DNA from: Monosporascus cannonballus
Taxonomy: Eukaryota > Ascomycota > Sordariomycetes > Xylariales
Length of the DNA stretch: 64,000 nucleotides
Reading direction: 5' to 3'
Assembly (NCBI GenBank): GCA_004154925.1
Contig: QJNS01000020.1
Coordinates: forward strand, 124,001-188,000
The position numbers and the translations under genes were made by a program. The notes under the pieces were generated by a model. The model was not told where the DNA came from, did no database searches, and was given only the letters and a program-made list of their open reading frames with translations. This document shows positions 10,980-42,493 of the stretch, in pieces; position 1 is the first letter of the stretch, and the number at the start of each line of letters is the position of its first letter.

Positions 10980-11462
10980 TATAACGGCCAAAAGTTTAAC
11001 GAAATATTAAACCTAACTCGTACGGATTGATATTACTAGAAATATTATAAAAATCTAAATAATAAAATAACTTACTAAAGTTACGTAATACTAAGCACAT
11101 TTTAAGTTATCAAGCTATATTATAAACTCGTATTATTTCAATTACTAAAATAGTGAACGTATTATAAATTTAATTATTCCTGCTAATTTTTACTAAATTA
11201 TAAAATTAGTATAATAATTTTTATAATCTTATTTATCGAAAATTTTGTAATAATTTTAATAATTTTAATTTTTACGAATCTCGCCAAAACTCTAACAATT
11301 TTAACTTTGGCTGATTTCGCAATAGTTTAATATTTCTATTGCGTAATTTATCATTTCGAACTGTATTTGTTTTAATTATTTCTAAATATACCAAAAACAT
11401 TAGGTTCTAATACGAATTTCCATCTTTTAGAATTTTCGTCTAAAAAAATTTAATTTGTAAGT
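10980..11462 (-). repeat. Gy-A 3' LTR of copy E
   Basis: Begins TATAACGGCCAAAAGTTTAAC, the mutated reverse complement of the LTR end, and continues through TAAACCTAACTCGTACGGAT. The far end, near 11,462, is placed by comparison with the LTR at 42,026-42,493 and is uncertain by tens of bases. Confidence 0.6.
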
Positions 11463-11544
11463 ATTTAATTTATTATTTTTAGTTATATTAAGAAATATGC
11501 TAAACTCTTTTCTAAAGCGAAAACCGCTTAACTTCATTTCTTAA

Positions 11545-12070
11545 TTAATGTAATTCTCTTGTTAAAGCTCGTTAAAGTAACGCGTTATATATATTGTAAA
11601 TAAAGAGGCTTATATTATTAACTATTTGAAACAAACTTTTTTCTTTATTGGTTTTATATTAACAAGAATTAATCTAATTATAACGCTCGAGATATTAACC
11701 TAAAATAACTATAACGTATAATTACTTAATATCGATATGTTAAATTAAAATTAAAAGCTTTTGAAAAGAAATGCCTACTGAGTTATTATTAAAATTAACG
11801 TTTATTTCCGCCATTTATATAAATAAAGAAATATGGCATAATAAAATAATATAAGCGGTGTCTCGTAATACTAACAACTTAAAAAGATGAGACGAACTAA
11901 AGCGTAACAAATGGGCAACGGCCGTAAAGATTGCGTTAATACTACTTTTCGCTTTTTTTAACTGCTTTAATATTAAGCCTATAGATTGGTCGATTATTAA
12001 TTAAAAAACTTCCAGCTTGGTCAATTTCAGCGTTATTAATTAAAAGTCTTTAATAGGTGTTGGGCGTTTT
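11545..12070 (+). pseudogene. Gy-A antisense accessory gene, copy E (wrecked)
   Basis: Lies between the 3' LTR and integrase of copy E, on the strand opposite to pol, as in copies 1, 2 and D. The start region (about 11,545-11,590) aligns with the Arg-rich N-terminus of copy 1. The end aligns better: GATTGGTCGATTATTAATT corresponds to the Asp-Trp-Ser-Ile tail, and AGTCTTTAATAGGTGTTGGG to the last codons before the stop. The middle has lost most codons to RIP and no frame stays open. The native stop codon is also changed. Function is unknown. Confidence 0.5.
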
Positions 12071-12129
12071 ACGAACTTTTGCCGGTTTCAAGATATTTTC
12101 AAAATCAAGCTATTTTTGTTCATTTAATC

Positions 12130-13317
12130 AAATATCAAGAAAATACGTTTTTTTCCCTTATTAAGCATTTTATTTTTCTATTTTTTATATAGTTTTATTT
12201 TTCGCCTTTGCTGTATTCTGTTATGAATAAATTCTAATATTAGTTATTATTAACTTAAATAAAACAAAATAAAAATATAAAAAACAGCATAAAGTTTAAC
12301 TTCGAACTGAAGTCTCTATTAATAATATTTTTACAAATCCTTATAGTAATTTCATATATGCTGATATATTTAAATTTATATATTTTACTAGGCTCTTTTA
12401 CTTGAATATTTTCTCTTACGAAATATATTATATCGTTTTACTCTTTCTAATTATAACATTTATTTATTTAATCAGGAATGAATTTTAACTTTATTTTTAG
12501 TTCTTAATATAATTATATTTTTATTGTTATATAAATATTACTTTTACGTTAACAAATTTATCGCATATATATTTACAAATACTAAATAAAAAATAACAAT
12601 TCACGTTTAATAAAAACCTTTTAATATCTTTGTAATAATTAGTATTATAAGCTATTTATATAATATATAATTTTTAACTTAATAGGTTTACTCGTAATTT
12701 ATATAATATTGTCAATATATTGCTAAAACGTGCTTTAATTATGTTTTTAATTCATATGCTAAAGGCTTAATATATTAGAAAACATATAATGTAAATCGAT
12801 TTAAATTACAAGGCTTTATTAAAAGCTTGGAAAAAAATATAGCTTTGTGTCAAAAATGATTTTATATAATTATCAGTATAAATAACAATATATTTGCAAA
12901 CTGAACTGGTTTATATTGCGTTTTTATATTTTTTTCAATATTAAAAAAAGAAACTTTCGCAAACTCATCAATAATTAAAAAAAGTTATTATCTTAATGTA
13001 TATTTATTTTCATATTCTAGAATAAAATTCATATTCTTATATTTCGAAGATATTGAAAAAATTGTATTTTTGTAGTACTTTTTAAAGGGTAAAATTATAT
13101 ATTATAAAAATAATAAATATGTTAAAACGATTTAAAAAATCATATAAATTCATTAATTTTTATAAAATGAAACTTTATATAAATAACCTATTCAGTTTTC
13201 CTAGCTGTTTCAAAAACGTTTGTATTTTATTTAAGTTCTTGTTTTTTAATAAAGTAATATTATATTTTATAATTTTCTAATATATATTACAGGGCATAAT
13301 CCGTATTAATGTAATTT
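12130..13317 (-). pseudogene. Gy-A copy E integrase C-terminal part
   Basis: Aligns block by block with the integrase 3' end of copy 1 (43,320-44,480), including TTCTAATATATATT followed by the codons where copy D inserted. Every frame is closed. It stops exactly at the AATTT target duplication next to the D LTR and resumes at 38,499. Confidence 0.6.
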
Positions 13318-13701
13318 TATTATAATTCAATAGGCTTAGCAGGCCTTGAAACCATCGGGTTAATGAAAAGATTAGATCTAATACGGGTACTGATTACGTG
13401 ATAAGCTTGAAGCTTTCAGAAATCTTAGTACTTCGAGCCTTTTCAGCTATATAAAGGTTATTAAAAAGTTTAAAAAGCTTAAAGACATATATCGTTTAAA
13501 CATTGTAAGCTATACGATATATTCGTTCGTTAAATCCCTTATTAAATAACATTAATTTACAACGTATTTTCGTTATTTAAAATTCTTTTGATTTATAAAA
13601 CGTAATTAAGTTATCTTATTGCTTAAATTCTTACAATGTTTCTATTAATATAAATCTATATACCTTAGATTTAATAATGAATTAAGCCTTAAGCTATTAC
13701 A
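13318..13701 (+). repeat. Gy-A LTR, 5' LTR of copy D
   Basis: Starts TATTATAATTCAATAGGC and ends AAGCTATTACA, RIP versions of TGTTATAACC... and ...CCGGCACA in the solo LTR. AATTT (13,313-13,317) just outside is one half of the target duplication whose partner follows 38,493. It contains TACGTG (13,395-13,400), a damaged form of the CACGTG box. Confidence 0.75.
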
Positions 13702-14373
13702 TGTTATATACTTTAATTTAATAATGCTGTTAAATTCTAAGCAATATATTTATTTTATTTAATATATTAACCAGTATTTAAAAAACTCTTATATAGCAAT
13801 TTGATAACCGGATTCGAAAACTCGAAGCGAAAGTTTAATAATTTATTAATCAGATTAAAAATGTTTTATTTACGTAAACCACTTTTATTAATATAAAGGT
13901 TAAAAGGCGAAAATTATATAATATGAAAAGTAACTTTCGAACTTTGTTAATTTAGGTATATGTTTATTTTTAATTTCTTTTCTCTTAAAAAGCTAGCAAA
14001 TTAGATCTTAGCCGTAAAGGCGTACTTAGCGAAAAAAAATACGGTCGATTAATTCGAACTCGTTATAAGGAATCTTCTAAAAAAAGAAAAATCGGATTAA
14101 GAAAAGTTCACTAACGAAGTCTTTTCTTTATATATTAATTTTAAATACAAAATACGTAATAGTTTCGGCAACATAATTGAAAATTCGATTTGCTATATAA
14201 TAAGTCCTATAACTGCAACAAAAACTAGTAGTATTTAAGTAAGCGGTTATTTTTAAAAACCTTATATCTAAGGCTGAATAAAAAAATGACAAAGCTAATA
14301 CCTTTATCAATATATTTTATAGAGGATTAAAGGATAACGTAAAAAATGAAAAAACTTAATTCGAATAATTAAG
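13702..14373 (+). repeat. Leader and gag-like segment, first unit of a tandem duplication
   Basis: Aligns with 14,751-15,400. Shared blocks include TTCGAACTCGTTATAAG (TTTGAACTCGTTATAAG in the other), AAATCGGATTAAG / AAGTCGGATAAAG and ATATATTAATTT. With the preceding LTR it forms a unit of about 1,056 bp repeated head to tail. It probably encoded the start of gag, but no frame is open. Confidence 0.6.
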
Positions 14374-14750
14374 TATTACGACCTGACAAGGCGCGGCCAT
14401 AGAAAACGGTCGTAACAGAGATTTACGACTAAATCGGTTAAGTTATGTAATGGTTTAATAGGATTGATCGTAGAGATTTTAAAGCTAGGTTTAACAGAAT
14501 TAGTCGTAAAGCTTTCAAAGCTAAGTTCGATAAAATCGATCGTAAGATTTTAAAGCCGGGTTTACTAAAATTAATAGGTTATCATATAAAAATATATTTA
14601 TTTATATAATTTAAATAATCATAATTTGCAATACAATTTCGCTAGCTGAAATACCTTTAATATTACGAAATTTAATTTATTATAATATTTTTATTAATAT
14701 AAATCGGTATAATGCAAATTTCATAATTAGTTAAATCTTTCGCCGTTATA
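14374..14750 (+). repeat. Gy-A LTR, second LTR inside the copy D 5' region
   Basis: Starts TATTACGACCTGACAAGGC and ends CGCCGTTATA. The next bases, TGGTATATGTTTC, begin with TGG as expected for a tRNA primer-binding site, so this LTR may be the one functionally attached to the D body. TATGTA at 14,454-14,459 corresponds to the CACGTG box. Confidence 0.7.
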
Positions 14751-15593
14751 TGGTATATGTTTCTATTTTATAACATTGTTAAAATATCGAGCGGTGTTTA
14801 AAAAACCGTGATTTAATAAGTTTAGATCTAAATATTAATATTTATAATAATGTTTTAATAATTTATTAGTTAAGTTAAAGTGATTTTATTTATACAGATT
14901 TTCCTTTCTTAAAATAAAGCTTAAGCAGCCGGAATTATATAAGAAAAAGGTAACTTTCAAATCTTTTTAACTGCAGTGCCCGTTTATTTTCGATTTTTCT
15001 TCTTTAGTAAATTAACGATTCAGGTTCTAGCAGTAAAAGCATGCTTAATAAAAGATGTAGTTAATTTATTTGAACTCGTTATAAGAGATTATTTAGAGAA
15101 AGCAAAGTCGGATAAAGCTAAATTTCTTAACGGAATTCTTCTTTTGATATATTAATTTCGAAAATCAGTTATACGATAATTTTGGCAATGAAAATAAAAA
15201 GCGGTTTGCAATATAATAGATTTTTTAATTACTATAAAAGGGATTAATTTTTAAAAAAGTAATTATTGTGAGAAACTTTAAAATTAAGGCCGAATAAGAG
15301 AATAATAAAGCTAACGTTTTTATCGAAATGTTTTCGAAGAGATTAAAAAATAATATAAAGAAATAAGATTATTTGCATCAAAAAACTCGTTGTTTTAGAT
15401 AAATATATTGCAAAAAGTATTAAAATCGAAATTTAACAGAATACAAATCGATAACAAAAGGATAATATATTTTACAATTTGGTTCCATTAAATCGAATTT
15501 CAAAACAAAAGCCAAATTCGCCTTTTATCCTTTATAATATTGCGTTAGAATTTATGAAATTTGGCGTTATTGATAGATAAAATTAAAGGTAAG
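14751..15593 (+). pseudogene. Copy D leader and gag-like N-terminal part
   Basis: Second copy of the 13,702-14,373 segment plus about 190 further bases. It is interrupted at 15,593 by Gy-B, with GTAAG just before the Gy-B LTR and CTAAG just after its far end. A Trp-Phe near 15,480 may correspond to the Trp-Phe-Glu of Gypsy gag proteins, but the match is weak. No frame is open. Confidence 0.45.
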
Positions 15594-16012
15594 TGTAACG
15601 AACCTGTTATATATCTACCTAGAGAGATAAGCAGTATCCTAAACAGGGTCTTGATTTACAGGTAATAACAAAGCGAGAAATAATTTAAAGGTTTATTCGT
15701 TAAAAAGATTTTCAAATTTTGTTCGAAATAAAGAACTGCTGCTTTTAACTTTAAACTTAGAGTAATAGTTAAAAAACGAAAACTAGATAAATAGTTAATT
15801 ATATAGAAAATCTATATTATATATACTCTTTTTATTTCTGTTAATCTTTAGAATGTATAAAGCATTATTTTTTTGATCTTTCGAAGTTTCTAAATATCTT
15901 TAAAAAACAAAGATATCAATAATTTCGAAGTTTTTCCGAGTAAGGTAAGGATCCTAACGAGTTAATTTACCTAGCTTTTTCTAGGTTTAATAAAGCCTTT
16001 TGAAACGTAACA
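15594..16012 (-). repeat. Gy-B 3' LTR
   Basis: In plus orientation it starts TGTAACGAACCTG and ends GAAACGTAACA. It aligns over its length with 32,695-33,118. Shared blocks include TTTAAAGGTTTATTCGTTAA / TTTAAAAGTTTATTTATTAA and TTTTTCTAGGTTTAATA / CTTTTCTAGATCTAGTA. Confidence 0.8.
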
Positions 16013-19000
16013 TTATTTCTCTTTTTTTAAAATCTTTATCTTTAAAGATTTAATAAGTAAATCATTTTTTTAGCTTTTTTACTTTGAAATGTTATTAACT
16101 ATATCGGGCAGACCTTGAAAATATATTAAAACTTTTATCAAATTTTGTTGTAACCTTAATAAATCCATTTTCGATTTTGGTTTTAAAGTTTTATCATATA
16201 CGCGTTATATTAAAAAAGGCTTTTTTAAAAAATACTAGAAGGATAGAAAATTTATTAAAATTATTTATCGGCTACTATTTAAATATATAACGAAAACTAT
16301 GTTGTATATTTATCTTTACAAAATATTTATATTAAGAAATTAGAGATTAAACGAAAAGAATCTGTTAAAAGATTAATAACTTTAAAGGCTATCTGATCGT
16401 ATTATTCGTTTAAATCGTTAATGGGAATATTTATATTTCTAAAAATTATTATTTACTTAAAAGAGCTTTAAAAGCATAAATAAATTAAAAAAAGTAAAAA
16501 GTTTAAAAAAGAAATAACTGTGTACAAAGGTAGAAAAAGTACGACTTATTTTCGAAATCTAGATTATAATAAAAATAAGTATTTTTTCGATTAAAGCATT
16601 TTTAAGGTTAATTTAAGGCCGACACTTTTATTACCAATAACTTCAGCCGTTTTAGAAATAGTTAATTAAGCTTTTGATAATAAAACGTTTTGACTAGATT
16701 TATCGCGTTGGTCAAATAAATAAGTAGTTTTTAAATTTTCTTTAATATAAATATTCTTTTTATTAAATTAGGTACCGCAATTTATTTTGAATTATTTTAA
16801 AATTCAATGTTTTTTTAATTTTGTATTCGTTAAAGTCTTTTTAGTTTCAAATTTCTTTTATCAAAGCATTTTTTAAATTCTGGTTTAAATAAGAAAATAT
16901 AAACAACAGAGTATATTTTGTATATATTTAAGTAATAAAACCAGTAATTCATTTTGGAAATAAGTTTCTCAATTTTAAACGGGCTGTATTTCTTAAAATT
17001 AAACTGATTTGTAGGTTTTTTCATTTTAATTTATAACATTTTTAAAATAGCATTTTGTCTTTAATACAGTAAATTAATTTTATTTCTATTCTATAAACCT
17101 AACTGTTAAATTCTGTTAATTATCGTATTAATTTATCCGTTATTAAAAGAATTATAATTCGTTTCGTAATAGCTTTAAATTATTTTAATTATTATCATTT
17201 TAATTTTTATTTATAAAATGATTATGAGGACTTTTGCAATTTTAGTAAATAATTATTCGAATCGTTTTATTTTTGCTTCATGTTCGTATATAATTATATA
17301 ATGAAATACGTTCCTATTTTCGTTAACAAATATATTATACAGAATCTCCGTCGGTAATAAAACTTTAATCTCATTATTTTGTTAAGAATTACTGTAATTT
17401 CGAAAATAGTTTTCCAAATTCTGATTTATTTTCTTGTTTAATCGTCCGTTTAAAGGTAATAAACTATTAAGAATTTGCGTTTAATATCGATTGTCTTAAA
17501 AAGATTAATATTAAACTTAAAATAAAAGGCCTTTTTCTATTAAAAAGGATGTTTTAAATATTGTACATGTATTTAGAAAGTATTGAATAATTACGTAAAT
17601 TAATTGTTTTACTGTGTCATTTTCTTCAAAAATTAAAAAAAAAATTATAATTCATTTTAATAATCTAGTCCCTAAATTAATGTATTTATAATAAGGTTTT
17701 AAACTATAATAATTTAGATTTGTTAAACATGTTAATAAATTGCAATAGCTCATAATGTTTATAACGTATTATCTTCACTTTATTAGAAATATTACAATCT
17801 TTAATAATTTTCTTACTTATTTGTCATAATTTAATAAAATCGTATATTCCTTATAATTCTTTTATAATTTTAAAAGAAACCTTCTAATATTTGTATAGTA
17901 AATTTTCGCAAATGATTTTTACGAATTATTTTATTAACTCTTAAAAACAGAAATTTTGGCGTAATATTTTAATTAATTCTTACGTTGTTTGTTTTGTTAT
18001 TTGATTTGTTTTAAGGTTTTTTATATTATTAAAATTCTGATTTTATGTTAACAGTTTAGCCGTTGGTTTCTTATTATCTTATGTAATTAAATAATCTCAC
18101 CTTTATTATATTATAAGATTGATATAGTTTTTTTAAGCATTTTAAATTTGTAATTTCTTTTAGTGCTAAAATTGCCCCTTTAAATATTTTCTTTTTTTTA
18201 TATAATATATGGCAAAATTAAATCGCGATAAGAAAATTATCGAAATTGTATATATATTTTTTAATTTACATCTTTTGATAAATTAAAAACTGTTTTTAGT
18301 GTGAAAATAAATATTAAAATATTATTATGTTTTATTGAAATCGATTTTTAAAAAAGAATTGTTAATAAAATTAATGGATTTTGATCGTATATTTAATATT
18401 TAAATTGTATATTGTTAAATACCATAAAATAATATAATATTAAATTTTACTTTTTATTATTTTCTATTATTTTCTGTTATTCTTTTGTTATTCTTAGATT
18501 GTTCTTAAAAAGTAGTTTAAAATATCTATTGTAGATCCTTTTTTATTAATATTAACTTAATTATATTATTAGTCTTTCAGAAATTTCGTTTTTAAGTATT
18601 TTAAAAACCTTTTTTAATGTTTCTATCTTTTTCAATTTTTTACCGTATTTTTATATTATATTTCGTTAATAATTTAATTTTATTTTCGTATGCTATAATG
18701 AAAATATATAGAGACCTTATCAATACTAGAATTTGCTATATTTTTATAACGTTTATTTAATTTAAAATAAATTAATTCTTAACTACTTTTAAGTTGAAAT
18801 CGTAAATTCGAATTTAATTGGAAATAAAGATAAATCTTGAAGCATGTATATTTATACATATTTTATATTTTTAACAATCTTGATTGCAATATTTGTTTTG
18901 TTCACAATTTTAAGTATATAAATTACGTAATTTATATATTTTTTGCAAATTCTTAACTGAAATCAAAATTTGTCAAAGTAAATTAATATCAATTTATTTA

Positions 19001-19369
19001 AATATCTTCTAAAAATAACTATAATTACGCACTAAAAACTTACAAAAACGTTAATAAATTCCAGAAATATTATTCGAAATTTGTGTAATTCGTATACTAT
19101 TTTAAACTTTATTTTTCATTTCCTTTTATTTTAGTTATTTTAATTTTATAATAGTTATTAGTTAAATCGAAACTGATAAATTATTTTATTTTATTAAGGT
19201 TTTTTTAATATATTAACAACAATTAAAAAATGTTTATTTTTAGTCGTAATATTATTTAATTATTTATTATCGATCATTCGTTAGTATTCAAATTTTCTAC
19301 TCTTATTAATCTTTTATTTATCAGTTCTTAATTTTAATATTATAAAATCGCGATATCTAGTAAGAGAAT

Positions 19370-19707
19370 TGTTATAACCTAACAGGCTGCGGCCCCGAGA
19401 AACAGTCGCAACAAGAAAATGACTAAACCATGTGGGTCAAGTCACGTGATGGCTCGACAGGATCTATCGTAGAGCCCATAAAGCCAGGCTCGACAAGGCC
19501 GAAGAAAACAAGTATAATACGCTCGTAATTTCCATAGTTTGTTTAGATAGCTTCATCTTGTAATATAACATCATTACTTAAGGTACCCTTGGTATTACGA
19601 GACGTGACACGTTACTATATCCATTGCTTAGAATCCCACGATACTCCTGCCAACATAAACCCGTACGACTAAGGTTTAATAGTTGGTTAAACCGCCTAGC
19701 CGGCACA
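19370..19707 (+). repeat. Gy-A solo LTR, best preserved, with target duplication
   Basis: A 338-bp LTR with TGT...ACA ends (TGTTATAACCTAACAGG at the start, CCTAGCCGGCACA at the end), flanked by AGAAT at 19,365-19,369 and 19,708-19,712. It has much more G+C than its surroundings and retains TG and CA steps, so it is the reference for the family. CACGTG sits at 19,443-19,448. Presumably a full element inserted and recombined to a solo LTR. Its length is below the roughly 400 bp that RIP needs in Neurospora, which may explain its survival. Confidence 0.9.
19443..19448. promoter_or_regulatory. CACGTG box in the Gy-A LTR
   Basis: Palindromic E-box-type hexamer within GTCACGTGAT. The same position in other Gy-A LTRs reads CACGTG (53,488), TACGTG (13,395 and 42,407), TACGTA (38,182) or TATGTA (14,454), a series explained by C to T and G to A changes. 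bHLH factors bind this hexamer in fungi. A role in LTR transcription is inferred. Confidence 0.5.
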
Positions 19708-20890
19708 AGAATTTCATAAATTAACTATATTTTGTTAAATCCAATTATAGATATTTTTATACAGCCTTTACGTTTTTTAAATTTATGTAATACAGTTTTT
19801 AAAACTTAACGCAATATCTTTTTAATAAATATTCGATATTTTTATTAAATATACCGTGATGAGTTATAATTCTTTATTTTTAAATAACTTAATAAAATTT
19901 CAATATTTACGCAGTATAATAAAAATTTGATCTGCAATCTGAACTTTTCGAACTGTATAATAAATTTCGTATTTAATGATTTTTTTGGTTTTAGAATGTG
20001 ATTATTTTACGAAAAAGTTTAACTTTTTTAGTTAATACGTAAAATATTAAATTTAAATTAAAACAATTTAAGCCTAATATCATATTTAAAAAATATTAGC
20101 GATATTCAACGAAAATTATTTTTAATATCTTTAAGCCTTCTTTAAATATTTATCAATTTTTTTGAAAAATTCTTCTACTCCTATATTTAGACAAAAATAC
20201 TTCTTCTGTACGTAATTTATAGGACTTTAATTTATATTTAAACGGAACCTTATATTTTTCAGCTATTATAGAAAAAATAAAAAGTTTTAACTTTTAAAGC
20301 GATTATAGCTTTAAACGTTTTGTTTTTATATTAACAAAAAACTTTAATTTAATTACGTACTTCTTTTTATTATCTTATATAAGATTTTGTAAACTTCAAC
20401 TTTTTAATGTCTTAATTTCGAAAACGTTTAGTGTCTTTTACTTGGTATAATTTAATTACGAAAAAATGTTTTTAATTTAGAGGTTTTTTAATACCATATT
20501 TAGTACAATAGTTATTTATATATTTATACCGTTTTTTCGTTCGAATTAAGATTTATAAGTAATTATCTTTTAATTCGTTCTTTAATTCTATTATTTCTAG
20601 AATATTTAGTTAAAGGTATGGCTTTTTAAAAAACACCATTTCTATATTTAAAAACTTATATAAGAAGTAAAATATCGAAAAGTAATAGAAGTGGTATTGT
20701 GATATAACTTTTTAATTTTTTTTAATTTAAAATATAAACAACGAAATCCAAAATATTTTATTTTTCGCAAGGCTTTCAGATATCGGCACTTATTATTAAA
20801 TATAATTAATATTTCAGTATTTTATTTCAGCTAAAATATATTTTCTAAATTTGAAACAAATTAAATAATCGTTACAATAATAAATAATAC

Positions 20891-21103
20891 TATCAGATAA
20901 TGGACAGCTGTGAGCTAGGGTGAGGTGATCTCTGACCAGTTACAAAGCGTATTCCAAAAAGTGAATGTATTAGGTTATTTCCCTCTAGCGTTTTCTACTA
21001 GCTGCCAGATAGTGGATTTATATTAATAAGTGGTTCGGTGGCTGATCGGTAGCTGGTCGGTTAGTAGCCTTTTTTTTATGAGAGTTATATTTTTATAATT
21101 ACA
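20891..21103 (-). repeat. Gy-C 3' LTR
   Basis: Plus-strand start TATCAGATAATGGACAG (probably once TGTCAG) and end TTTTATAATTACA. It keeps ATTCCAAAAAGTGAATGTAT and GGTGGCTGATCGGTAGCTGG, both shared with the LTR at 30,863. This copy is less mutated than the right one. Confidence 0.8.
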
Positions 21104-21276
21104 TCACTATTTTAAGTTATTAATTGTTAATAATATTATTATTAATTTAATATAATATATTTCGTTAATCCGGTTACGTATATTTACTAATAATTCTCTG
21201 TTAGAACTAGGTAAGTTATGTTATATTTTAGATAATTACCGTAATAACTAATGCCTATTATATTACGTAATTAATT

Positions 21277-21546
21277 ATGTTCCGCATAATTTATTATAAT
21301 AATCCGTTTTTTAACCTTATTTGGTTTACTTTTTTTGCGCTTATATTTCTATTCTTTTTGCGTACGCGTTCCGTTCTGTTTTTCGTTTTTCTTTTCGCTT
21401 TTTCCTTTGTTTTGCGTATAATCTCCGGTTTTTCTCTGTTCGCCATTTGTTTTCTCGTAAAAAATTCTAAAATAAATAGTATTTCAATATTAACAATAAT
21501 TGGGATTTCCTTTAATTTTATCCCATCAACTTTAACGGTAAAATAA
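21277..21546 (-). pseudogene. Gy-C basic C-terminal tail (Lys/Arg-rich frame)
   Basis: The minus strand is open here and reads as a strongly basic peptide, for example KTKEKAKRKTKNRTERVRKK. It lies just inside the 3' LTR, where a Gypsy polyprotein would end. The plus-strand frame over the same bases is a Phe/Leu/Ile-rich shadow. A basic nucleic-acid-binding tail is inferred. The sequence is also consistent with a low-complexity purine tract. Confidence 0.35.
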
Positions 21547-23586
21547 ATATTAGTCGTATTATAAATAATAATAAATCGTATTATATTTATGTAATATTAC
21601 GTTATATCGATTATCGTATAGTTTGCGTTTAACTTCCGGACTTCTTAAATTACGTTATGGCCGGTTATTATTATAAGACTTTTCGAACGATAAATAGTTA
21701 TTTTTAATATTATTAATATCGTTACTTGATTTCTGTTCAAAGTTGAATTGTTCTTAAAAATGTTTTTAAACAATCTTTTAATTTGGTACCGAGAATTAGG
21801 AATTAATCAACAAATTCGAAAAAACTTATATTACGGGTATTTAATACGAACGTTTTGATGTAATTGCGATCGGTCGTCGATTCGACACTTTTCGCGAGGG
21901 CGAGTTCGCCTTTAACCTAATTATTATTAAGGAATTTTATCTTTTTAATGTATCGGAGGTCGATTTCCGATCGTCCGTTATAATTGCAAAAGTCCAGTTT
22001 TAATGCCATTTTATGGGTTTACAAATTTAAGTTCTTTTTATAAATGTTACGATCTTTTTCTTATTATTTCGCAATTAATGTCCGATTAAGTATAGTTTTA
22101 AAGTACCTTTATAAGTAAAATAACTTTCAAAGGCCGTTATATCGTTACGTTCCTCGTTTACGAACATTTTCCGCCCGTTTTTGGACGTTTCGATAAAGTT
22201 TTAATATTTATTAATAATTATAACCGGAAAACGGTTTTGTCTAGCAAGGTTATTACCAAACCTAAGTACGTTAAGCGTTCTAAGGACGGCGCTTTATTTC
22301 TGATTAATAACAAATTATATTCGGGTTATCTAGGCCTTGTTTTTTTTGTAAAAAAGAAATAAAACGTTTTTAAGTTTTTTCCGAGTTTTATATTTAGTAG
22401 ATTTAATAAATTTACCTGTTTTTTTGTTATTATATGTTTTTCGATTATTTTTCGATATTCTTATATTAATTTTTCTCAATACGGTTAATAAGGGCTCAAT
22501 AATATTAAGCGTAATAATTATACCTAAAACTTTGTTTTTAAAACGAAAATTTAATTTCTTTTATATTGCCTGTCGGTTTTCGTCCAGTGTACGATAAGGT
22601 AATTATTTACCAGAAACTTAAATGCAATTTTATAACTAAGTGATATTTCGATGTTAATATCTTAATTTTATTTAGAATTACTTTTTGTGATTTTATAATT
22701 ATTAGACGATTAATTTTCAATTAGGTTATTATTATCCTGCTGTTTTTCGGTCTTCTTATTTTTTATATACATATTTAATTTTCTTTTTATAATTTTATAA
22801 TATTTTGGTTACGTATTCGAAATACGTTCGAGATTTTTACGTACTCTGTTCAGCGAGCTAACCTTTATATTTAATTAAATATTTGCGTTATTCTCGATTA
22901 TATCGGTAATGGATAATATTTTGTTTCATTTACTTTTCTTATTTTTTTACCAGCTTTAATAGTATTATTTAAATATTATTTAGTTCTCGATTATATTATA
23001 GTTTTAATCAAAGTACCGGGAATACATTATGTATTTATTAATATTTGGTAAAAAGAATTACGTTATATATTTAAAAACATATTTATTCCTTAATCGGAAT
23101 CTAGATATAAATAAGTACAAACTTTTTATTTTTGAACTTAATGTTCTTTGTCGATAAATGTATTTATTGCCTCATTTAAAAGTATATAGGCGTATAACGT
23201 TAATTATAATATTTCTTTTAAATTACCGTTATTTTCTTCTAATATTTATATATTATTCGACAAATAGCTGGTATTTTTTCGAAACGTTTTTTAATTTTTT
23301 ATATTTATCTCTTTAACGTTTAGAAAAAGTTATTTTATTATTTTTGGATAATATTCTATACGGCTTTAAACGGAAAACGGCCGATAAATAGGTTCCGCGT
23401 ATTATTCTATACGAATTCCGTATTTCGTAAAAACTTTGTCCAGGTATTTTAATACTTATTAACGTAATTACGGAAATAATGTTTTAAAACTTAATAAATA
23501 CGTTCCGTTTGCTTATTGGTTTACGGAGAATAAACTGTCGATATTCGCCGCTTTACTTTTTGTTTTTTGCAAAATTTCGCCCAGAA

Positions 23587-23814
23587 TTAGTTCGTTAGTA
23601 ATTTGTTTTTATCGTTAATACTTCCGGTTAGCGTATCGAATCTATATTTGACCTCGTTATAAAATAATCGGGTTAATTCGGTTATAATCAGTGTTTTAAC
23701 TCTAAAGATGAATAGTTTTAATTTCGTAAAGCGGTGGACGATTACTAGAATTACGTTATATTTTAGCTCGTTTAAACTTAGGCTTTGAAGCAATCCCGTA
23801 ATAAAATTTAACAA
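23587..23814 (-). pseudogene. Gy-C integrase core fragment
   Basis: A 75-residue minus-strand stretch without stops begins NFITGLLQSLSLNELKYN and continues VILVIVHRFTKLKLFIF. This matches the Gypsy integrase core D-F-I-T-G-L-P...Y-D-A-I-L-V-V-V-D-R-F-T-K. The first catalytic Asp is changed to Asn and the Asp of V-V-D-R to His. A later S-I-N-D-K-N-K-L-L-T corresponds to S-I-V-S-D-R-D-x-x-F-T. Lost Asp residues and closed flanks show it is dead. Confidence 0.85.
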
Positions 23815-24132
23815 GATTTTTTTAAAAAGAATTTATTTAAGTAACAGTAGGGGCTATAATTATCTATATGGTTTATGGCGTAACTTTATTGTGCCCTAGT
23901 AGTTCGAATATTATTTGGTATATTTTCGGATATTGTTCGCCATATTTTTCCAGTAAAACCTTTTCGTTATTAATTTTAACGTACGGATATATTCTATATA
24001 TCCTACCCTCAAATCATTATAATACTAGCTAATTAATTCCTTTCGTAAAACGCTTTATAATAAGATTACGAATTCATCTCGATAATATAAAACCTTTTTT
24101 GCGTCTAGGAAATATTTTTCTATTTCGGCTTA

Positions 24133-25433: not shown

Positions 25434-25999
25434 TAACGTCCAGCTATCCGTATTAGTTTTATAATATTTAAGTTCTTAATTTACAACTTTTGAACCTGAT
25501 CGTAAAACTGTCGGAAAGTTTTCGGCTATAATACCGTTTCGTTTTTAGCTAGTTCCTTTATTAAAAAATGTAAAACATATTAATTATTAATAATAACCCT
25601 AATATTAGTTTCATTTTTTTAAATTCCTTGGAATCTGATCGTAATACAGTCATAATTTACGATTATTATTGTTTAATTATTACCTCAGCTAGCTTAGGCC
25701 TCTGATGGCTCGTTTTTATTTGGATGTATTTTTATATATTACGGCAAAGCATTAAAAATAACCAATTAAATAACGTATCCCCGTAACGAACTAATAAGGC
25801 CTAACTTAAAGTTGCGCAAAAGACTTTTCGTTTGGTATTTTTCTAAATAAAATAATTGATTTCTTTTATTTTTAAAGCGAACTATATCCGATAGATTTAA
25901 TATTTCATATATATCTCGAAATTAAATTAATATATATGCAGGATTTTCTTCAAATTTATGAAGTAAAGATTAGGGTCGGTATAATTAAGTTTAAAACAT

Positions 26000-26665: not shown

Positions 26666-26862
26666 AAAGAAATGTATTAATTTAAAATTTTCATTTTTTT
26701 TAATATTTCCATTAATTTAACCCCGAATTAAAAATTATATATACTATTTAAAAATTGCTTTAATGTTGTACATACTATTAATATTTGTAAATTTTCAAAA
26801 TAACTTTTGAAAAATTTATATGAGAACGCACCAAACGGAATTAAAAAATCATAATTTGCCAT

Positions 26863-28700: not shown

Positions 28701-30862
28701 TCCCTGTTTTTTCGCAATATATTCGCCGTAAACTCTCTCTATATATAGGGAGGTCGGTTATCCTTTATTTGTATTATTTTGGCATTCCGGAATATTTAAC
28801 TTTTTGATTAAACTTATCAGATTAACGGTATAAATTTGCTTATCGGAAAACGTTAGATTTGCGATTTTCTACTTATTGACCTTTTATAATAATCTATATA
28901 ATCATTAACATATGATTATATTTAATAAAATGTTTAATTTGTCTATTTTTAGTCCGAATAATAGGAAATTAGGCGTTTTCTAGTTACGGCATATTACAAA
29001 ATAAATTTGCTGAAATTTCTGTTCGTTCTCATTATTATTCATCATATTAATAGGAATTTCGTAAGCTTTATAATATTTGATATACGTATCGTTAATGAAG
29101 ATAAGTCCTAGAATATTTATGAAAATAAGTTAGAGGTTAAGTTTTTTCGCTACTTTTTTATTTGCAGTATTCATTTGTACTCCGATATTTATATTTACTT
29201 ATATTATTATATCCTCTGTATTTATTTTAATAAATAGCTTTTTTAAAAGGTTGCTTTGTTTTAACCGTTTTATAATTATTAGCCGAAATAGGTTAAACAT
29301 ATACGTTTATTCCGGTTCTTTTTTTGGGTTTACGTTTAGAAATGATTTTGATTTATTGTTATATATTATGATATTTTGTACGCCTTTCAGAAATCTGTTT
29401 CCGTATAGGCAGGATAGCAGAGTTTTTATATTTTTTTTAATTTCGCAATTTACGTTTTTATAATTTAACTTTCTATAATTATAATACTTAAATAGGCTCT
29501 TATAAAAATTAAGTGTATTATGTTATATAGATTTGTTCCGATTTTAACTAAATCGGCAATTATCTGTTTTCCGAATATAAAAACGCCTGTAATTCTTATT
29601 GTTTTTACGTGGCGTTTTTAATTTACTTTAGAGATCTTTTGTGCTGAAACCGTTACAATAAAATTGTTTATCTTTATTAATATTTTTTGTAAAAAATAAT
29701 CGGTTTTCTTTTGCTTTTTTTCAGGCGTTCTAATAATGTTCTGCCTTATTTACTATGTTATTAACTCGTTTTAACTTAACGTTTTTTCGCATTAAGGTAT
29801 TTTATAACACTAATATTAATTTATAAAAGTAATTAAAACCAAAGCGTTTATTATCTCGATTATTTTCCGGGCTAAAAACGTTTATAAGCTTTATTTTATA
29901 AACTAAGAACCTTTATTTAATCCAAGTTTAACGGTAATTAATTACGTTATTATCGTAATTTTATAAATTATTCGGTATGTTTCTTATCGAAAAAATTAGG
30001 ATTTACGCAACCTTTCTTAATAAAAATTTATAAAACTTGTATTTTCAATTTTTTCGTAATTAAAATAATTAAATGTAATAGGATATAATTACTAAACGTT
30101 TGTAATAAAAACGTCTCTATAGCTTTGTAAGACAACGAGAGTGCAACGCTAGCTAAAATATTAAAAGGTCAGCAATTCCAAATCCTAATTGGGGTTTGGA
30201 CACCCTAATCCACCTTATAAGGACTAGCTGTGCATATTATCACAGGCTTATAACTTATTGAATATAAGTAAAAGTATTTTACCTTAATTTTTCGGCGCAA
30301 ATTTCGTAATAACTTTTATTTAATTTCTTTTTCTCTTTAATCGACGCGCGTTTAGAAAACTTTAAACAATTATAACGTATTATTCGTTTATTGCTTTTAA
30401 GCCTTTGCGACTATATCGTAATTAATTTATAAAACTTTGCTTTTTTAACTTATATCATTATTTATTATTCGGTTAGTTGTTAAAGTAATTTCGAATATTA
30501 TTTATTTTATTAACCGATAATCTTTAAGATTTGGTTATTATTAAGGGATTTAACCTTTTTTTATTTTGAATTCCGGGACGTAGTCGTTATATTACGTCCG
30601 TTTTGCAACCGTTTAATTAACGGTTATTGGGTCGCATTCTTATTGTATATATAAGGTAATTCGGGATTCCGGGAACTATGGTTCTTTGTTCGTTAGGGCT
30701 CCGTTATAAGCTTCTTCGCCTATTTCCGTGCCGTAATTAATTATTTGTCAGTTGGGTTCCGATCGGCGGTCTTTTCGATTAGTAACCTAGGTTCGTTTTA
30801 CAGTTAACAAGCTCTGTTTCTAGTAGTTATTACGTTATCCTCTATAGTAAAAATAAAAGAAT
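28701..30862 (-). pseudogene. Gy-C gag and leader region, degenerate
   Basis: Lies between reverse transcriptase and the 5' LTR on the minus strand, where gag and protease should be. No motif can be aligned. The last 300 bases (30,560-30,862) keep more G+C than the rest. The 70-codon plus frame at 29,251 is judged an antisense shadow. Confidence 0.4.
30117..30240. other. GC-richer island inside Gy-C
   Basis: About 120 bases with many unmutated TG and CA steps, including CAACGAGAGTGCAACGCTAG, the partial palindrome CCAAATCCTAATTGGGGTTTGG split by a short centre, and ACCCTAATCCACC. It may be a late short insertion. No terminal repeats or target duplication could be defined. Confidence 0.35.
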
Positions 30863-31073
30863 TATAAGATAATAGATAGCTATAAATTGGGGTAAGGTAA
30901 TTTCCGACCAATTACACATCATATTCCAAAAAGTAAATATATTAGGTTATTTCCATCTTGCATTTCCCATTAGCTGCTAGATAATAGATTTATATTAGTA
31001 AGTCGGTCGGTGGCTGATCGGTGGCTGGTTGACTACCAGCTTTATCCTTATAGCGGCTATATTCTTATAAATA
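30863..31073 (-). repeat. Gy-C 5' LTR
   Basis: Direct-repeat partner of 20,891-21,103, starting TATAAGATAATAGATAGC. It keeps ATTCCAAAAAGTAAATATAT and GGTGGCTGATCGGTGGCTGG. Differences from the left LTR are largely G to A and C to T. Confidence 0.8.
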
Positions 31074-31078
31074 TAATA

Positions 31079-32694
31079 TAATAAATCCAAAAGATCTATT
31101 TCGCTTTCTTGATAAATACCGTATATTTAAGAAATTTATTAAACTTAAAGGATAAGTATTTATTATTATTAATATTTCATCGAAATTAACTGTTTTTATT
31201 ATTTATTTTATATCTATAAATATTAGTATAACAAAGGTATTTTAATTTTTAATTACAGTAGAAATTATTTATCTTAAAAAATACTTATAAAGTTTAATCT
31301 TAAACTCTCGAAAAATATAATAATTCTTATATTTTAAAATATCGTTTTAAGAATGAGTAATAATAGTAGTAATATATTCTGGCCTTAAAAATCGAATTAG
31401 TTTTTTTTCTCCTTATTCTTTGCTTTATTAGTGATTTTATATTTAAATATTTTAAAATTCTTCTAAAATTAAAGCGTTTTTTATTTTTTAAATAGTTTTT
31501 TTGCCATAATTTAAATATTTTATTTGAATTTACTTTTTTAAAGTTCTTTTATCATAGTATTCGTGTTTTTAAATTTGCCTTTATACTTTTTAACTTTATT
31601 ATTAAAATTTGTATTATTATTTTGTTTATTAGTTTTTTTTTCTCTTAAAATAGAAATTAAAAGTTCGTCTATCCACGATAATAACTTTATCGGTATATTC
31701 AATAAGAAATCTTATTTTAAGTTTTATATATAATTTATTTTCAACTTGTATTCTCAAGCCGTTATAATAATAATAAACTAAACTGTTTTTTAACAAATTA
31801 AAAATAGTAGCTAAATAATTAAATTCGGTTATATATTAAAACGTTAATATTGTTCGGCGAAAGAAAATTACCTAATTACGTATTATTCTTTATTTAAACT
31901 TCTCTATCAAATGTATTTATTTTTTAAAATGCTTGTACTTATTAAAAATTTAAATTTTTATATTCGAAAGTTTGTCTGAATAACTCTGCAAGTAACTTTT
32001 AATAATAGATTCGAACTATCAAAACTTTTTAACGCAGTAATTACGAAATAACAATGATTTTCGAATAATCTTCTATTAAAGAAACGTTATAAATTTAAAT
32101 TAAAATGTAACTTAAACTAAAAATGTTTTTATATCGATAAATTTATTATAAGACTTGAAGAAAATTAACCTATAACGTTTAACGATTGGCATATTATAAT
32201 AATTAAAAATAATATAATATTTTATTCAAACTAATATACGTTAAATAATAATAGAATTAATGTTTTTTATTTTTGAAAGTATTTAACATTTTTAAGGCTT
32301 TAACTTTCGTTAGTAAGATATATAGATTTTATCGATTATAACTTTTTCTTTTCTTACTTTTATGTAATCTTACTTTTTTTAAATTTTCTTAGTCTTAAAT
32401 TCGTATATTTAAATAATATTTTTAACGGAAATACATTATTATTAGGAACAGAAACGCTTTTTAAAATCAAATAATAAACCATACTATATTATTAATTCAT
32501 TATAGAACCTTTTCGAACAGTAATAAATTAATTAATCTAATTATTAATCCCATATCAATTAATAAATGATATCGGATATAATATTTATTTTTAAACGCTA
32601 TTTTTTATTAATTCCTATATTAAATTTAAAAAACACTTATACCTTAACTGCATAGTAAATTATTTATCGGCGTTTAATTACAGAATAACTAAAA
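31079..32694 (-). pseudogene. Gy-B gag and leader region, degenerate
   Basis: Part of Gy-B between the Gy-C insertion and the 5' LTR. The plus strand is T-rich, so the minus strand is A/G-rich and would be Lys-rich, as expected near a gag nucleocapsid. No zinc knuckle or capsid motif is recognisable. Confidence 0.4.
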
Positions 32695-33118
32695 TATAAC
32701 GAATCTATTATGTACTTATTTAGAAATACAAAATAATGTCCGAAATACAGTTTTATTTTATTAAAAGCATTAAAGAAACAATAATTTAAAAGTTTATTTA
32801 TTAAACAATTTACACACCTTTCTTAAAATGAAAAACGGTTACTTTTAATTATAAATTTAAATTACTAATTAGGAAACGAAAGCTAAGTAAGTAATTATTT
32901 ATATAAAAAACATGTATTATATTTATTCTTTTTGTTTTTATTGGTCTTTGTAGTTTAGGAAAAAGCCATTGCTTTTAATCTTGGAAAACTTCTGGATACT
33001 TTTTAAGAAAAAGAAAGATACTAATAGTTTCGAGGCTTTTGCGATTAAAGTAAGGATTTTGACGGGTCAGTTTATCTGGCCTTTTCTAGATCTAGTAGTG
33101 TCTCCTCGAGACATAACA
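32695..33118 (-). repeat. Gy-B 5' LTR
   Basis: Starts TATAACGAATCTA and ends GAGACATAACA in plus orientation. The right half keeps much G+C (GGTCAGTTTATCTGGCC, TAGTAGTGTCTCCTCGAG). It is followed by CTAAG, which nearly matches the GTAAG preceding the partner LTR. Confidence 0.8.
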
Positions 33119-38493: not shown

Positions 38494-38498
38494 AATTT

Positions 38499-40560
38499 AA
38501 TGTAAGCATAATTATTCTTTTAAGGGAACATCGAAAATTATATAACTAATTTTAACTAATTTCTTTCGAAATTTGATTCCATACTTACAGTAGTAATTTT
38601 ATAGTTTTTAGGCTTTTTATTATATGTAATAACGAAAATAAAATTCGTTATTTTTTTACATGTTGTAATTATCGTCTCGTAGATATTTTCAGTTGTAATA
38701 AAACGGATAAAATTTTAATAATCGGTATAGATTTTAACTCAATAAGTATTTCTCTTAAGAGAATACTTAAATCCGCAAAAAGCTATAGAAATAGCCATAA
38801 AGCTTTTATAAAAAAACGTAATTACAATCGGTTTTTAGAATTTAAATGAAAAGAATATAATAAAAAGTAATTTGTTTTAATTATATCGATTTTTAATTAC
38901 TATATCCAATATATTATACGAAATATTGGTTTTAAATTCGAAAAAATGTATTAAATCGTATATAATTAATATTAATATATTACTAGTCGTATCCTGACCT
39001 TTGTATATGCGTTTCGGCGTTTAAAGTATTTATTTTAATTTCTTAGTAAAATTCATTAAACCTGTAATAATGGTATTAAAATTTCGAATAAACCATTTAT
39101 AACAATTAATAAATCCAAAAAATGCTTATATTTTTAACTGCAATTAACGTTCGTTACTTTCTAATTATAAGAACCTTTAAGGTTCATTTGAATGTATTTT
39201 AAAATAACGATATATTTTAAGTTTTATACTTTTTATTTATGAGATTAATTTTTTTTTCTATATTAGGTAAAAGTTTAGTACTTTATAAAGCTTAACAAGC
39301 TTTATAGGCGTATTTTGTACATATCGTTTCAGTCTTTAAAAAATTTAAATTATTATCAATATAAAATATAAGATAAGTATAGAAATATATTTATATTATA
39401 TAAATTACTTTTTATTAAAAGAGTATTAATATATTTGTAAATCATATTAATATATTTCCATATTTAAATGAATCGTATTGTACATAAAAATGGAATTTTT
39501 ACCTATATTTTTAAAATTTAATAGATATTAATAGTTTATAAGATTATATAATATATATTGTTTAGATTTATAAAATTGATATATAATTCCAATAAGTGAA
39601 TACAATAATATATAATTGTTAATTATAGTATCGCTTAATTATAAAAAATTAATTCTAAATTGTTAAAATTTATTTTTTAAAAAATATATAAAATGTAACA
39701 TATTTTACGCGTAATTTTAAAAGTTCAATTTAGTTTTTATAATCGAATTTTCACATATTTTGTAAAAGCGCATGATTCGTTTTCGTTAAAGTTATAAATA
39801 AGATAAAATTTTATAAATAAATTCTCTTTATGAATTACTTATAATTCTATTTATTATATTTTGATAATATTATATTAATTAATCCTTTTTCTTTTTCGCG
39901 TTGTTATTTTATACCGTTACTTAATTACATAAATCTTATATTAATAATAATAATGATAATAAGAATACGTTTTATTTTTGATTTATATTTATTTTATTTT
40001 TTTGTATTCTTAAATAATGAAATATTAATTATATTTTGTATTTAAGTTTACAACTACTTATAAATAAATATTAAAATTTCTTTTCTTTATGTTTTACTTA
40101 TTAATAAAATATAAGACAAACTCTATTCACTTAATCTCGAACAAGAAAGTTCTTATACTAATATACTTATAATCTCTCCAAAATTATATCGAAATTTATT
40201 ATTTCATATTAGTTTTAGAGAAAACTTTCTAAATAATTAATTTGGCGTTTAATTTTTCTATTATCGTATATAAAATTTTAACTTTCGATATTTGTAAAAG
40301 CAAAAGGTTTTAACTTATATTTTTATAGTGATTTAAATTTAGTAATAATGTTTAGTATAATATAATGTCTATTTACAACTTCGTAATTCATTATCACAAT
40401 ATATTAATATATTTTAAATCGTAGATTTAGTATACTAAATCTATTAACGGTTTTTATTTTTACGTTTAAAGATTCTTTTAAAAATGTTGTCGAATTTATT
40501 TTTTAAATTTCGTTAATTTACGGCTTTGTTATAAATAGCTGTTCTTTTTTAAATTTATTA
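38499..40560 (-). pseudogene. Copy E integrase to protease remnants (right half)
   Basis: Continues the integrase frame left at 13,317 and aligns throughout with copy 1 (44,490-46,560). The reverse transcriptase active site lies near 39,341-39,360, where copy 1 has YFDD and this copy reads Tyr-Phe-Ile-Leu after mutation of both Asp codons. Frames are closed throughout. Confidence 0.7.
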
Positions 40561-42025
40561 AATTATACTTATATTCACGTATATACTATATTAAGGTATT
40601 ATTTTATCATTTTTGTCTATGTATATATCTTTTAGATTATTATCTTTCGATTTCTTTCATTGTTTTATTATTAAATTATTTATTCGTTGTTTATTATATA
40701 TTTCTTTATATTATATTAACAATATTGTTCCGTCTAATGTAAATGAAAATGCAAATTTTACTTTTAATAATGTTTTAAAATTTATAATAAATATTATTTA
40801 AATATAGAAATTCGTAATAACGTTTTATTAATATGTTTCTATTATATAGGAAATTCAAACTTTTGCGAAAATATAATTATATAAACCGCAAAATAACAAA
40901 GTATATAAATATTAATTTTTTAATTAATTCTCGATATTAATTGTTTTATTAATATCGGTTTTCAAAATAATAATTCGCAAACATCGAGATTATTGTTTAT
41001 TTAATTTATTCTTTTGGATTTAAATAAAAAATTCGATTTTATATATATATAATATGTTAATAAATTACCTTCTATATGCGTCATATATTAAATTTCTATA
41101 TTATTAATAATATATATTCTCTATTTTGCTTTATTACTTGAAACTTTTATGATATATGTTTTCCGCGTATGAATAATATTTCTTAGTTACGTTTTTAAAA
41201 TATTTTATTATTTTTGAATATTTTAAGCTAATTATTTGGCGTGTTATATTTCTAATGAAATATTGTATTCCCATAATATTTATTCTAATTAACTTGAAAT
41301 TAAATTAATAATTCGGTTATTTTTGTTAAATGCCTTTGCATGAAAATCGATTTATTTTCTATTATTAAAACCTTTTTAATATACTTTTAATAACATTTTA
41401 TTTTGTTATAATTATAATATTTAATTTAATTTTTTTACATTCAACCGTTTCGAGTTGTATAAGTCCGGACGTAATATTACGACATATAAACAAATCATTT
41501 CGTTTTTTTGGCTTAATAAACGGATTAATTTCAATGCTTGAAAATATATTATTTTTATGCGATATTTATTCAATTTGTTATTAATTTTCGGAAGTCCGTA
41601 ATATATATATGTAATAATTTTATTTTTGAAATTACCTTCGTTTTATAAATATATTAATTAAATTATTATATTTATGAAAAGTTCAGTTTATTGTCATTGT
41701 CAAAATTTAAGAAAAAAATATTTATATATTTCAAAATAAATCTGTTTTATTATAGCCGCAAAATCTATTATATTCCCGTCCACTTTTTATTTAAGATTTC
41801 GAAATTAATCTTTAATTATTTCTTAAAATCTACGGAATTAAAAAATATTAATAATAATTTCTGAAATAACTTTAACTTTTTTAAAAAATCTTTTATTATT
41901 AATTTAAATAGATATAAAATGTTATCTATGAAAAACGCCGTATTAATAAAACTTTTATATCGAATCTATTTATATAATAAAAACGAAAATATATTGGTAT
42001 TTAAATTAAAGAAATTAAACGTTTA
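40561..42025 (-). pseudogene. Copy E gag and leader, degenerate
   Basis: Corresponds to 51,080-53,105 in copy 2 (shared TTATAAATA... followed by AAATTTATTAAA, then ATACTTATATT). No capsid or zinc-knuckle motif survives. The 62-codon plus frame at 40,613 is an AT-rich chance frame. It adjoins the LTR at 42,026. Confidence 0.5.
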
Positions 42026-42493
42026 TATAATGGCTAAACGGTTTAACAAACTATTGAACCTAAATCGTACGAATTTATATTAATAGAAATATCGTAAAAA
42101 TCCAAGTAATAAATATAATACGTATTATGTTTTCTAGTATAAAAAATATTTTAAATAATTAATTATTATTACAAATTAAAGTTATTTAAATTTATAAAAA
42201 TAACGAACATATATATCCTTATTCTGGCTTAAGGTACTTAAGCGGCTTAAACCTTTAAACTTATTAAGCCTTTTAAGCTTTTTTGCTGGCTTAAAAGGTT
42301 TAAAATATTTGGCGCCTTAAAACCTTTAAGCCTGTTAAGTCCCTTAAGCTTTTTTGCTAACTTAAGGGGCTTAAAGTGCTTGGCGCCTTAAGACCTTTGA
42401 ACCAGTTACGTGATGTCTTGGCCTTAGTCAGAATTTATTCTTTTTTGTGGCCCCGACCGTCTGTAGGGAAGCCAAGATTATTAAGTCATAATA
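42026..42493 (-). repeat. Gy-A LTR shared by copies E (5') and 1 (3')
   Basis: A 468-bp LTR in reverse orientation, from TATAATGGCTAAACGG to GTCATAATA. It contains a tandem array of about 70-bp units (42,242-42,402), TACGTG at 42,407 and the GC-rich block GTGGCCCCGACCGTCTG. The left neighbour is the leader end of E and the right neighbour is the polypurine tract of copy 1, so one LTR serves two elements. Confidence 0.75.
42242..42402. repeat. About 70-bp tandem units inside the LTR
   Basis: Units start GCGGCTTAAACC (42,242), GCGCCTTAAAACC (42,312) and GCGCCTTAAGACC (42,383, partial). Each contains an imperfect palindrome around AAGCTTTTTTGCT, with CTTAAG-type arms. The same array occurs at 53,323-53,484. 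Confidence 0.8.

What the first reader, a model, noticed from the sequence alone, without database searches (positions are those of the whole stretch)
10980..42493. Five-level transposon nest reconstructed from target duplications
A mariner-type element (TA duplicated) sits in Gy-C, Gy-C in Gy-B, Gy-B in Gy-A copy D, and D in Gy-A copy E. The strongest links are D in E and the mariner in Gy-C. For D in E, AATTT is duplicated at 13,313 and 38,494 and the integrase of E continues across D when compared with copy 1. Gy-B in D rests on GTAAG/CTAAG, LTR orientation and a net length of about 7.0 kb. Gy-C in Gy-B rests on paired LTRs and a possible TAATA duplication. The order of insertion gives a relative clock for RIP.
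Basis: partly seen in the sequence, partly recalled or inferred. Interest (0 to 1): 0.85.

Follow-up and report, generated by a model that had tools for sequence, protein, structure and literature searches.

The report
Nested, mutated jumping genes in fungus
A stretch of fungal repeat DNA is a set of jumping genes that landed inside one another about five deep; other copies in the same genome confirm the order and correct one boundary, and the damage done by the fungus's repeat-mutating defence does not visibly track age.

Summary
The five-level nest is real. Each claimed insertion leaves an empty site in other copies of its host family: D in E, 15 of 15 copies exact; Gy-B in D, 11 of 15 exact (4 do not align there well enough); Gy-C in Gy-B, 4 of 19 (all 4 that reach both flanks); mariner in Gy-C, 38 of 38 entered sites within 4 nt, 27 exact at TA.

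Corrections. E does not end at 42,493: that LTR belongs to copy 1 (42,026-53,574, GTTTA/GTTTG), itself inserted in E. E runs to 54,278, beside genes; its own target site is unresolved. Gy-C's duplication is AATAC/AATAT, not TAATA. Missed: a solo LTR in Gy-B, an hAT-like element and a ~122-bp insert in Gy-C, a 130-bp MITE in E's right LTR, and three-LTR structures in D and copy 1.

Against: LTR pairs are reciprocal best matches for D and copy 1 only, not for Gy-B, Gy-C or E, so for those three the evidence is junctions, not LTR similarity.

RIP as a clock is not supported: LTR transversions fall inward (D 9.1%, Gy-B 7.4%, Gy-C 4.9%), but transitions and GC show no detectable relation to them. 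An ordinary kind of structure, well documented here.

The parts
10980..13317 (-). E (Gy-A copy), left part with left LTR from 10,980; ends with one AATTT copy
   Evidence: 1-2390/2392 of L012/L011, lenient scoring; 15 of 15 exact. Coding strand minus from RNaseH and RT pieces of the family
13318..15588 (+). D (Gy-A copy, opposite strand to E), left part; carries two LTRs and two copies of its end (13,318-14,377 and 14,378-15,588)
   Evidence: both copies seen at length in 5 of 7 reference copies (L009, L010, L013, L014, L015); L011 and L012 partial
15589..15593 (.). GTAAG, left target duplication of Gy-B (right copy CTAAG 33,119-33,123)
   Evidence: 11 of 15 exact empty sites
15594..33118 (-). 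Gy-B, whole span including what is inserted in it; LTRs ~15,594-15,975 and ~32,695-33,118
   Evidence: LTRs match each other (score 903) but single LTRs of L038, L026, L039 match as well or better; RT_RNaseH_2 (weak) and SH3_Tf2-1 in pieces of copies L029 and L032
19370..19707 (-).
20891..31069 (.). Gy-C, whole span including inserts; LTRs 20,891-~21,096 and 30,864-31,069; duplication AATAC 20,886-20,890 / AATAT 31,070-31,074
   Evidence: LTRs not reciprocal best
24133..25433 (.). Mariner-type element, 1,301 bp, 28-nt terminal inverted repeats, TA 24,131-24,132 and 25,434-25,435
   Evidence: 38 of 38 entered Gy-C sites lack it, 27 exactly
   Evidence: 40 candidates scored, the window's own included; 5 of 7 exact empty sites as entered
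30124..30246 (.). ~122-bp insert in Gy-C, absent from other Gy-C copies seen; kind unknown
   Evidence: e.g. C131, C618, C584
33119..38493 (+). D, right part with right LTR ending at 38,493
   Evidence: D LTR pair reciprocal best
38494..42025 (-). E, middle part between D and copy 1 (AATTT 38,494-38,498; GTTTA 42,021-42,025)
42026..53574 (-). Copy 1 (Gy-A), inserted in E; LTRs 42,026-42,493 and 53,106-53,574; holds a third, unpaired LTR at 46,578 and a duplicated internal part
   Evidence: RNaseH piece 49,224-49,361
53575..54278 (-). E, right end with right LTR ~53,798-54,278, then gene-rich DNA
53917..54046 (.). 130-bp MITE in E's right LTR, AAAAT on both sides, TIR TGTTAYGGCY
   Evidence: (39 other listed copies at 94-99%)

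Best explanation
The AT-rich block is a nest of transposons built by successive insertions in a Monosporascus-like fungus and mutated by RIP. E, a Ty3-type LTR element, was hit by D (same family, opposite strand) and, separately, by copy 1 (same family, same strand). D was hit by Gy-B, Gy-B by Gy-C and by an element of which only a solo LTR remains, Gy-C by a mariner-type and an hAT-like element. A 130-bp MITE sits in E's right LTR. Shown: nest order, boundaries and duplications. Inferred: D and copy 1 became three-LTR elements because a same-family element inserted into each and homologous recombination then removed one or the other duplicated half. Inferred: RIP was heavy early and then no longer tracked age, while the 130-bp and 338-bp inserts largely escaped it.
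For: Empty sites in other genome copies; target duplications; reciprocal best LTR pairs for D and copy 1; transversions fall inward; copy 1 in E from L014 and L023; RT, RNaseH and SH3_Tf2-1 pieces in Gy-A and Gy-B; RIP indices and CpA/CpT bias; GC of the 130-bp and 338-bp inserts 0.51 and 0.43 against 0.19-0.32 for longer layers.
Against: LTR pairs of Gy-B and Gy-C are not each other's closest relatives: Gy-B pair 903 against 990 (L038) and 909 (L039); Gy-C pair 653 and 10 transversions against up to 708-722 and mostly 6-7 transversions to other copies. This fits an older copy whose two LTRs each drifted from a slowly changing master, but it is the refutation that the finding named. E's two LTRs are not best matches either and its outer duplications differ. 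Copy 1 in E: only 2 of 15 reference copies align up to the junction on both sides (+1, +2); 9 more agree within 10 nt, but their right flank starts 77-178 nt away and L021's left score is below the noise maximum; 4 fail. The recombination step rests on geometry: too few diagnostic sites (10) to place a switch. Gy-C and mariner pieces gave no informative Pfam match. The transversion trend is weak between neighbouring layers.
Confidence: 0.92

Rival explanations
1. One reading: E ends at 42,493 with the LTR at 42,024 as its own, and copy 1 is a neighbour.
For: An LTR of the right family lies there and the DNA before it is E.
Against: E's sequence before 42,026 stops about 210 nt short of the LTR in L014 and resumes after 53,574; the LTR at 42,026 pairs with 53,106 (score 1738; next best 1044 and 1071) and is flanked by GTTTA/GTTTG.
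Confidence: 0.05
2. D and copy 1 have three LTRs because of tandem insertion by unequal crossing-over or template switching in reverse transcription, not self-insertion and recombination.
For: LTR-internal-LTR-internal-LTR elements are known in plants (PMC5379124, passages); our switch-point test was uninformative.
Against: The extra LTR abuts the middle of the internal region, not its end, in both, and copy 1's extra LTR is closest to another copy's LTR (L016).
Confidence: 0.3
3. The structure is an assembly error in repeats.
For: Only one assembly, no reads available; LTR pairs of Gy-B and Gy-C are not reciprocal best.
Against: Copies in the window differ by about 16-35%, so collapse or chimeric joins are unlikely; junctions carry fitting target duplications.
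Confidence: 0.02
4. RIP damage rises with age and can date the layers.
For: The innermost large LTR layer, Gy-C, has more GC (0.264) than Gy-B, D and E (0.19-0.21).
Against: L011 has 0 of 394 LTR transversions yet GC 0.205 and 14% transitions; no detectable correlation over 11 and 8 pairs.
Confidence: 0.15

Closest known systems
Nested LTR retrotransposons (plants, e.g. Arabidopsis, up to five layers; PMC5379124 passages)
   Same: Younger elements inside older ones, resolved by target duplications and LTRs; three-LTR complex elements
   Different: Here every long layer is rewritten by RIP, so identity is a poor measure of age
AT-rich RIP-affected isochores of filamentous ascomycetes (e.g. Pyrenophora teres, PMC5915480 passages)
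   Same: AT-rich blocks of decayed transposons beside GC-balanced genes; nested insertions named there as an obstacle
   Different: Here one block is resolved junction by junction
Short elements below the RIP length threshold (MITE and ZIT1 of Fusarium poae, PMC4994206 passages)
   Same: A short repeat stays near-identical and GC-balanced
   Different: Different element, and seen here inside heavily mutated hosts

Membership tests
Ty3/Gypsy LTR retrotransposon (Gy-A) | TG...CA LTR pair with 5-bp target duplication | tested here: met
   L010, L011, L012, L014, L015; D AATTT twice
Ty3/Gypsy LTR retrotransposon (Gy-A) | Reverse transcriptase and RNase H | tested here: met
   RT piece L021:4050-4253 (1.2e-7), RNaseH window 49,224-49,361 minus (4.6e-6), both over the curated cut-off
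Ty3/Gypsy LTR retrotransposon (Gy-A) | Integrase downstream of RT and RNase H | tested here: inconclusive
   SH3_Tf2-1 at the fitting place and strand in L017, but only E 0.012, under its cut-off
Ty3/Gypsy LTR retrotransposon (Gy-B) | Ty3-type domains | tested here: met
   SH3_Tf2-1 2.1e-9 and 6.2e-9; RT_RNaseH_2 only 0.009
Ty3/Gypsy LTR retrotransposon (Gy-C) | Ty3-type domains | tested here: inconclusive
   No retroelement match in open pieces; LTRs and 5-bp duplications present
Tc1/mariner transposon | TA duplication and terminal inverted repeats, ~1.3 kb | tested here: met
Tc1/mariner transposon | Transposase domain | tested here: inconclusive
   No Pfam match in short open pieces
hAT transposon (25,680-27,002) | 8-bp target duplication | tested here: met
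   TTTAATTA twice; 5 of 7 exact empty sites as entered
hAT transposon (25,680-27,002) | Terminal inverted repeats and transposase | tested here: inconclusive
   Only imperfect ends TTRYCTYA; piece 26,238-26,645 without Pfam match
RIP-affected DNA | High TpA/ApT, low (CpA+TpG)/(ApC+GpT), CpA-biased transitions | tested here: met

The most novel reading that the evidence does not exclude
RIP in this fungus works as a front-loaded pulse that ends when repeats diverge, not as a clock, and same-family self-insertions are resolved by homologous recombination before or during that pulse, leaving both reciprocal three-LTR products (D and copy 1) side by side in one nest.
Probability: 0.45. Interest if true: 0.45.

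Novelty: new member of a known kind. Interest (0 to 1): 0.32.

Why it matters
Nested insertions give an insertion order that does not depend on sequence identity, so they can test whether RIP load measures age. At least one study assumes that RIP is constant over time when ranking insertions by identity (PMC8759822, passage). In this nest transversions keep the order and RIP transitions and GC do not. The sample is small; the same test can be run on the whole genome.

Tried and rejected
Lenient transition-tolerant local alignment aligned unrelated AT-rich DNA end to end; it was replaced by stricter scoring with reversed-sequence noise levels. The E boundaries printed were partly forced by where the query was cut and are not used for E's right end. 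In one search the Gy-B and Gy-C LTRs had no rival LTRs of their own family, so their being best partners there says nothing; with rivals they fail. A purine/pyrimidine subtype test for the switch point in copy 1 had only 10 usable sites. Genome-wide RT and integrase profile searches did not help to type these copies. Most Pfam scans of short open pieces were empty (all 10; 10 with only weak off-topic matches; most of 65, 69, 70); ETRAMP 0.022 and DUF3083 1.7e-4 (below its cut-off) were taken as chance. DNA left of E (10,699-10,979) is the end of another Gy-A copy; whether E sits in it could not be settled, because I found no convincing continuation of it after 54,278. Paper searches.
Full report
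Setting. The window lies in contig C124 of an 88.8-Mb, 618-contig genome. A 494-residue frame at 59,519-61,003 is 93% identical to a Monosporascus sp. GIB2 protein and GH76 pieces lie at 55,716-56,297 and 56,605-57,027, so the host is a Monosporascus-like Xylariales fungus. Kilobase windows up to 54,000 are 15-34% GC, the DNA after 54,278 about 51%.

Method. I fetched other copies of each family from the same genome: 15 places of the 44 matches for Gy-A (L009-L023), 19 for Gy-B (L025-L043), and took coordinates of 38 Gy-C sites. For each junction I aligned 500-nt left and right flanks separately to each copy and asked whether they meet with the overlap that the target duplication predicts; for Gy-C inserts I did this from listed coordinates. 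Noise maxima from reversed sequence were 123-172 in score units.

Results by layer. D in E: 15 of 15 exact. Gy-B in D: 11 of 15 meet the criteria, all exact; L011 and L012 have a poor left flank (-3), L020 a poor right flank (+27), and L019 does not align there. Gy-C in Gy-B: 4 of 19 meet the criteria, all exact; L038 is also exact with a right score below noise; the other 14 do not align on both sides. Mariner in Gy-C: 38 of 38 within 4 nt, 27 exact at TA, 9 off by 3 nt, one by 2, one by 4. Solo LTR in Gy-B: 15 of 19 within 1 nt after correcting the edge; the other 4 do not reach. hAT-like in Gy-C: 5 of 7 exact as entered. Copy 1 in E: 2 of 15 meet the criteria (+1, +2), 9 more within 10 nt on weaker alignments, 4 fail.

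E's real extent. In L014, E's piece reaches element position 6,083 at 42,019 and its continuation starts at 6,093 at 53,581; extrapolated to 42,025 and 53,575 these are 6,089 and 6,087, close to a 5-nt overlap. The LTRs at 42,026 and 53,106 are each other's best match (1738; next 1044 and 1071) and are flanked by GTTTA and GTTTG, which differ by one RIP-type transition. E therefore ends at 54,278. The flanks of E, TGAGT and CTACG, do not match. The DNA left of E is the end of another Gy-A copy, so some later change on one side is likely.

LTR pairs. D and copy 1 pass the finding's test: reciprocal best among the Gy-A LTRs compared. E's LTRs do not. For Gy-B, LTRs of L038, L026 and L039 beat the pair on the left side and L039 on the right; for Gy-C, each LTR is nearer to LTRs of C57 or C592 than to its partner, with 6-7 against 10 transversions in most comparisons. 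If the master copy stays nearly unchanged and the window copy is older, each of its LTRs drifts by about half the pair distance and lies nearer to young copies than to its partner; the numbers (about 5 + 5 against 5 + 1) fit that. So for Gy-B and Gy-C the case rests on empty sites and duplications.

Three-LTR elements. D has one complete set plus a second copy of its left-hand end (13,318-14,377 after 14,378-15,588). Copy 1 has a second LTR at 46,578 and duplicated internal sequence (43,112-46,576 and 47,607-51,082, 78.8%). If an element inserts in the same direction into its own kind at position x, recombination can delete either the first or the second duplicated part. The results are a full element plus the part after x (D's form), or the part before x plus a full element (copy 1's form). 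This is inference.

Clock. LTR transversions per site: E 0.160 (30/187, noise level), D 0.091 (35/384), Gy-B 0.074 (28/380), Gy-C 0.049 (10/204), copy 1 0.017 (8/468), and 0 to 0.025 for four other Gy-A copies; three other Gy-C copies 4/214, 1/210, 12/211. D > Gy-B > Gy-C matches the nest; neighbouring intervals overlap and the trend gives p 0.026-0.065 over five settings. By chance alone three layers fall in this order one time in six. Transitions (12-23%) and GC do not follow. In the duplicated internal parts of copy 1 the share of C changed to T is CpA 0.58, CpT 0.52, CpG 0.36, CpC 0.32, as expected of RIP.

Size. The 130-bp MITE has 39 other listed copies at 94-99% identity and GC 0.51. 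The 338-bp solo LTR has GC 0.43 and 8 relatives at 86-89%. The ~122-bp insert has GC 0.40. The layers of 1.3 kb and more have GC 0.19-0.32. This fits a lower size limit of RIP (the figure of about 400 bp is recalled; PMC4994206, passages, speaks of a length threshold).

Names. Gy-A has RT and RNase H pieces and a weak integrase-end piece; Gy-B has SH3_Tf2-1 and weak RNase H pieces. E, copy 1 and Gy-B code on the window's minus strand. Gy-C and the mariner-type and hAT-like elements are named from structure only.

Literature seen. Passages only of PMC7407469, PMC5379124, PMC5915480, PMC4994206 and PMC8759822; search listings for the others. In PMC7407469, the Monosporascus genome paper, the find tool counted no word beginning with 'transpos' or 'repeat'; it reports gene-free contigs of 24.76% GC. 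By title and start of abstract, searches listed no paper that dates RIP with a transposon nest; that is a statement about those listings only.

Verdict. Ordinary kind, well resolved. The order is right, one boundary and one duplication were wrong, several insertions were missed, and the clock idea fails in the form given.

Noticed in passing
53917-54046: 130-bp MITE with AAAAT on both sides and TIR TGTTAYGGCY, 39 other listed copies at 94-99% identity, unmutated inside RIP-affected DNA; a decayed relative lies near 10,155-10,285.
   Followed up: partly
19370-19707: Solo LTR of Gy-A type, GC 0.43, in Gy-B; 8 other near-full-length scored copies at 86-89%.
   Followed up: yes
25680-27002: hAT-like 1.3-kb repeat with internal direct and inverted repeats, 40 scored candidates including its own.
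   Followed up: partly
30124-30246: ~122-bp insert of unknown kind in Gy-C, GC 0.40, absent from other copies seen.
   Followed up: no
10980-54278: CpG is strongly over-represented among what GC is left (observed/expected 2.4-2.95 in the long layers other than the hAT-like one), as if CpA and CpT were mutated most.
   Followed up: partly
2335-4252: Further Gy-A copy end on the other strand, and Gy-A LTR pieces at 6,935-7,237 and 10,699-10,979; a Gy-B piece at 24-835.
   Followed up: no
54278: The AT-rich block ends at E's LTR end; GC rises to about 51% and genes follow (GH76; a frame whose relatives are named SET-domain proteins).
   Followed up: partly
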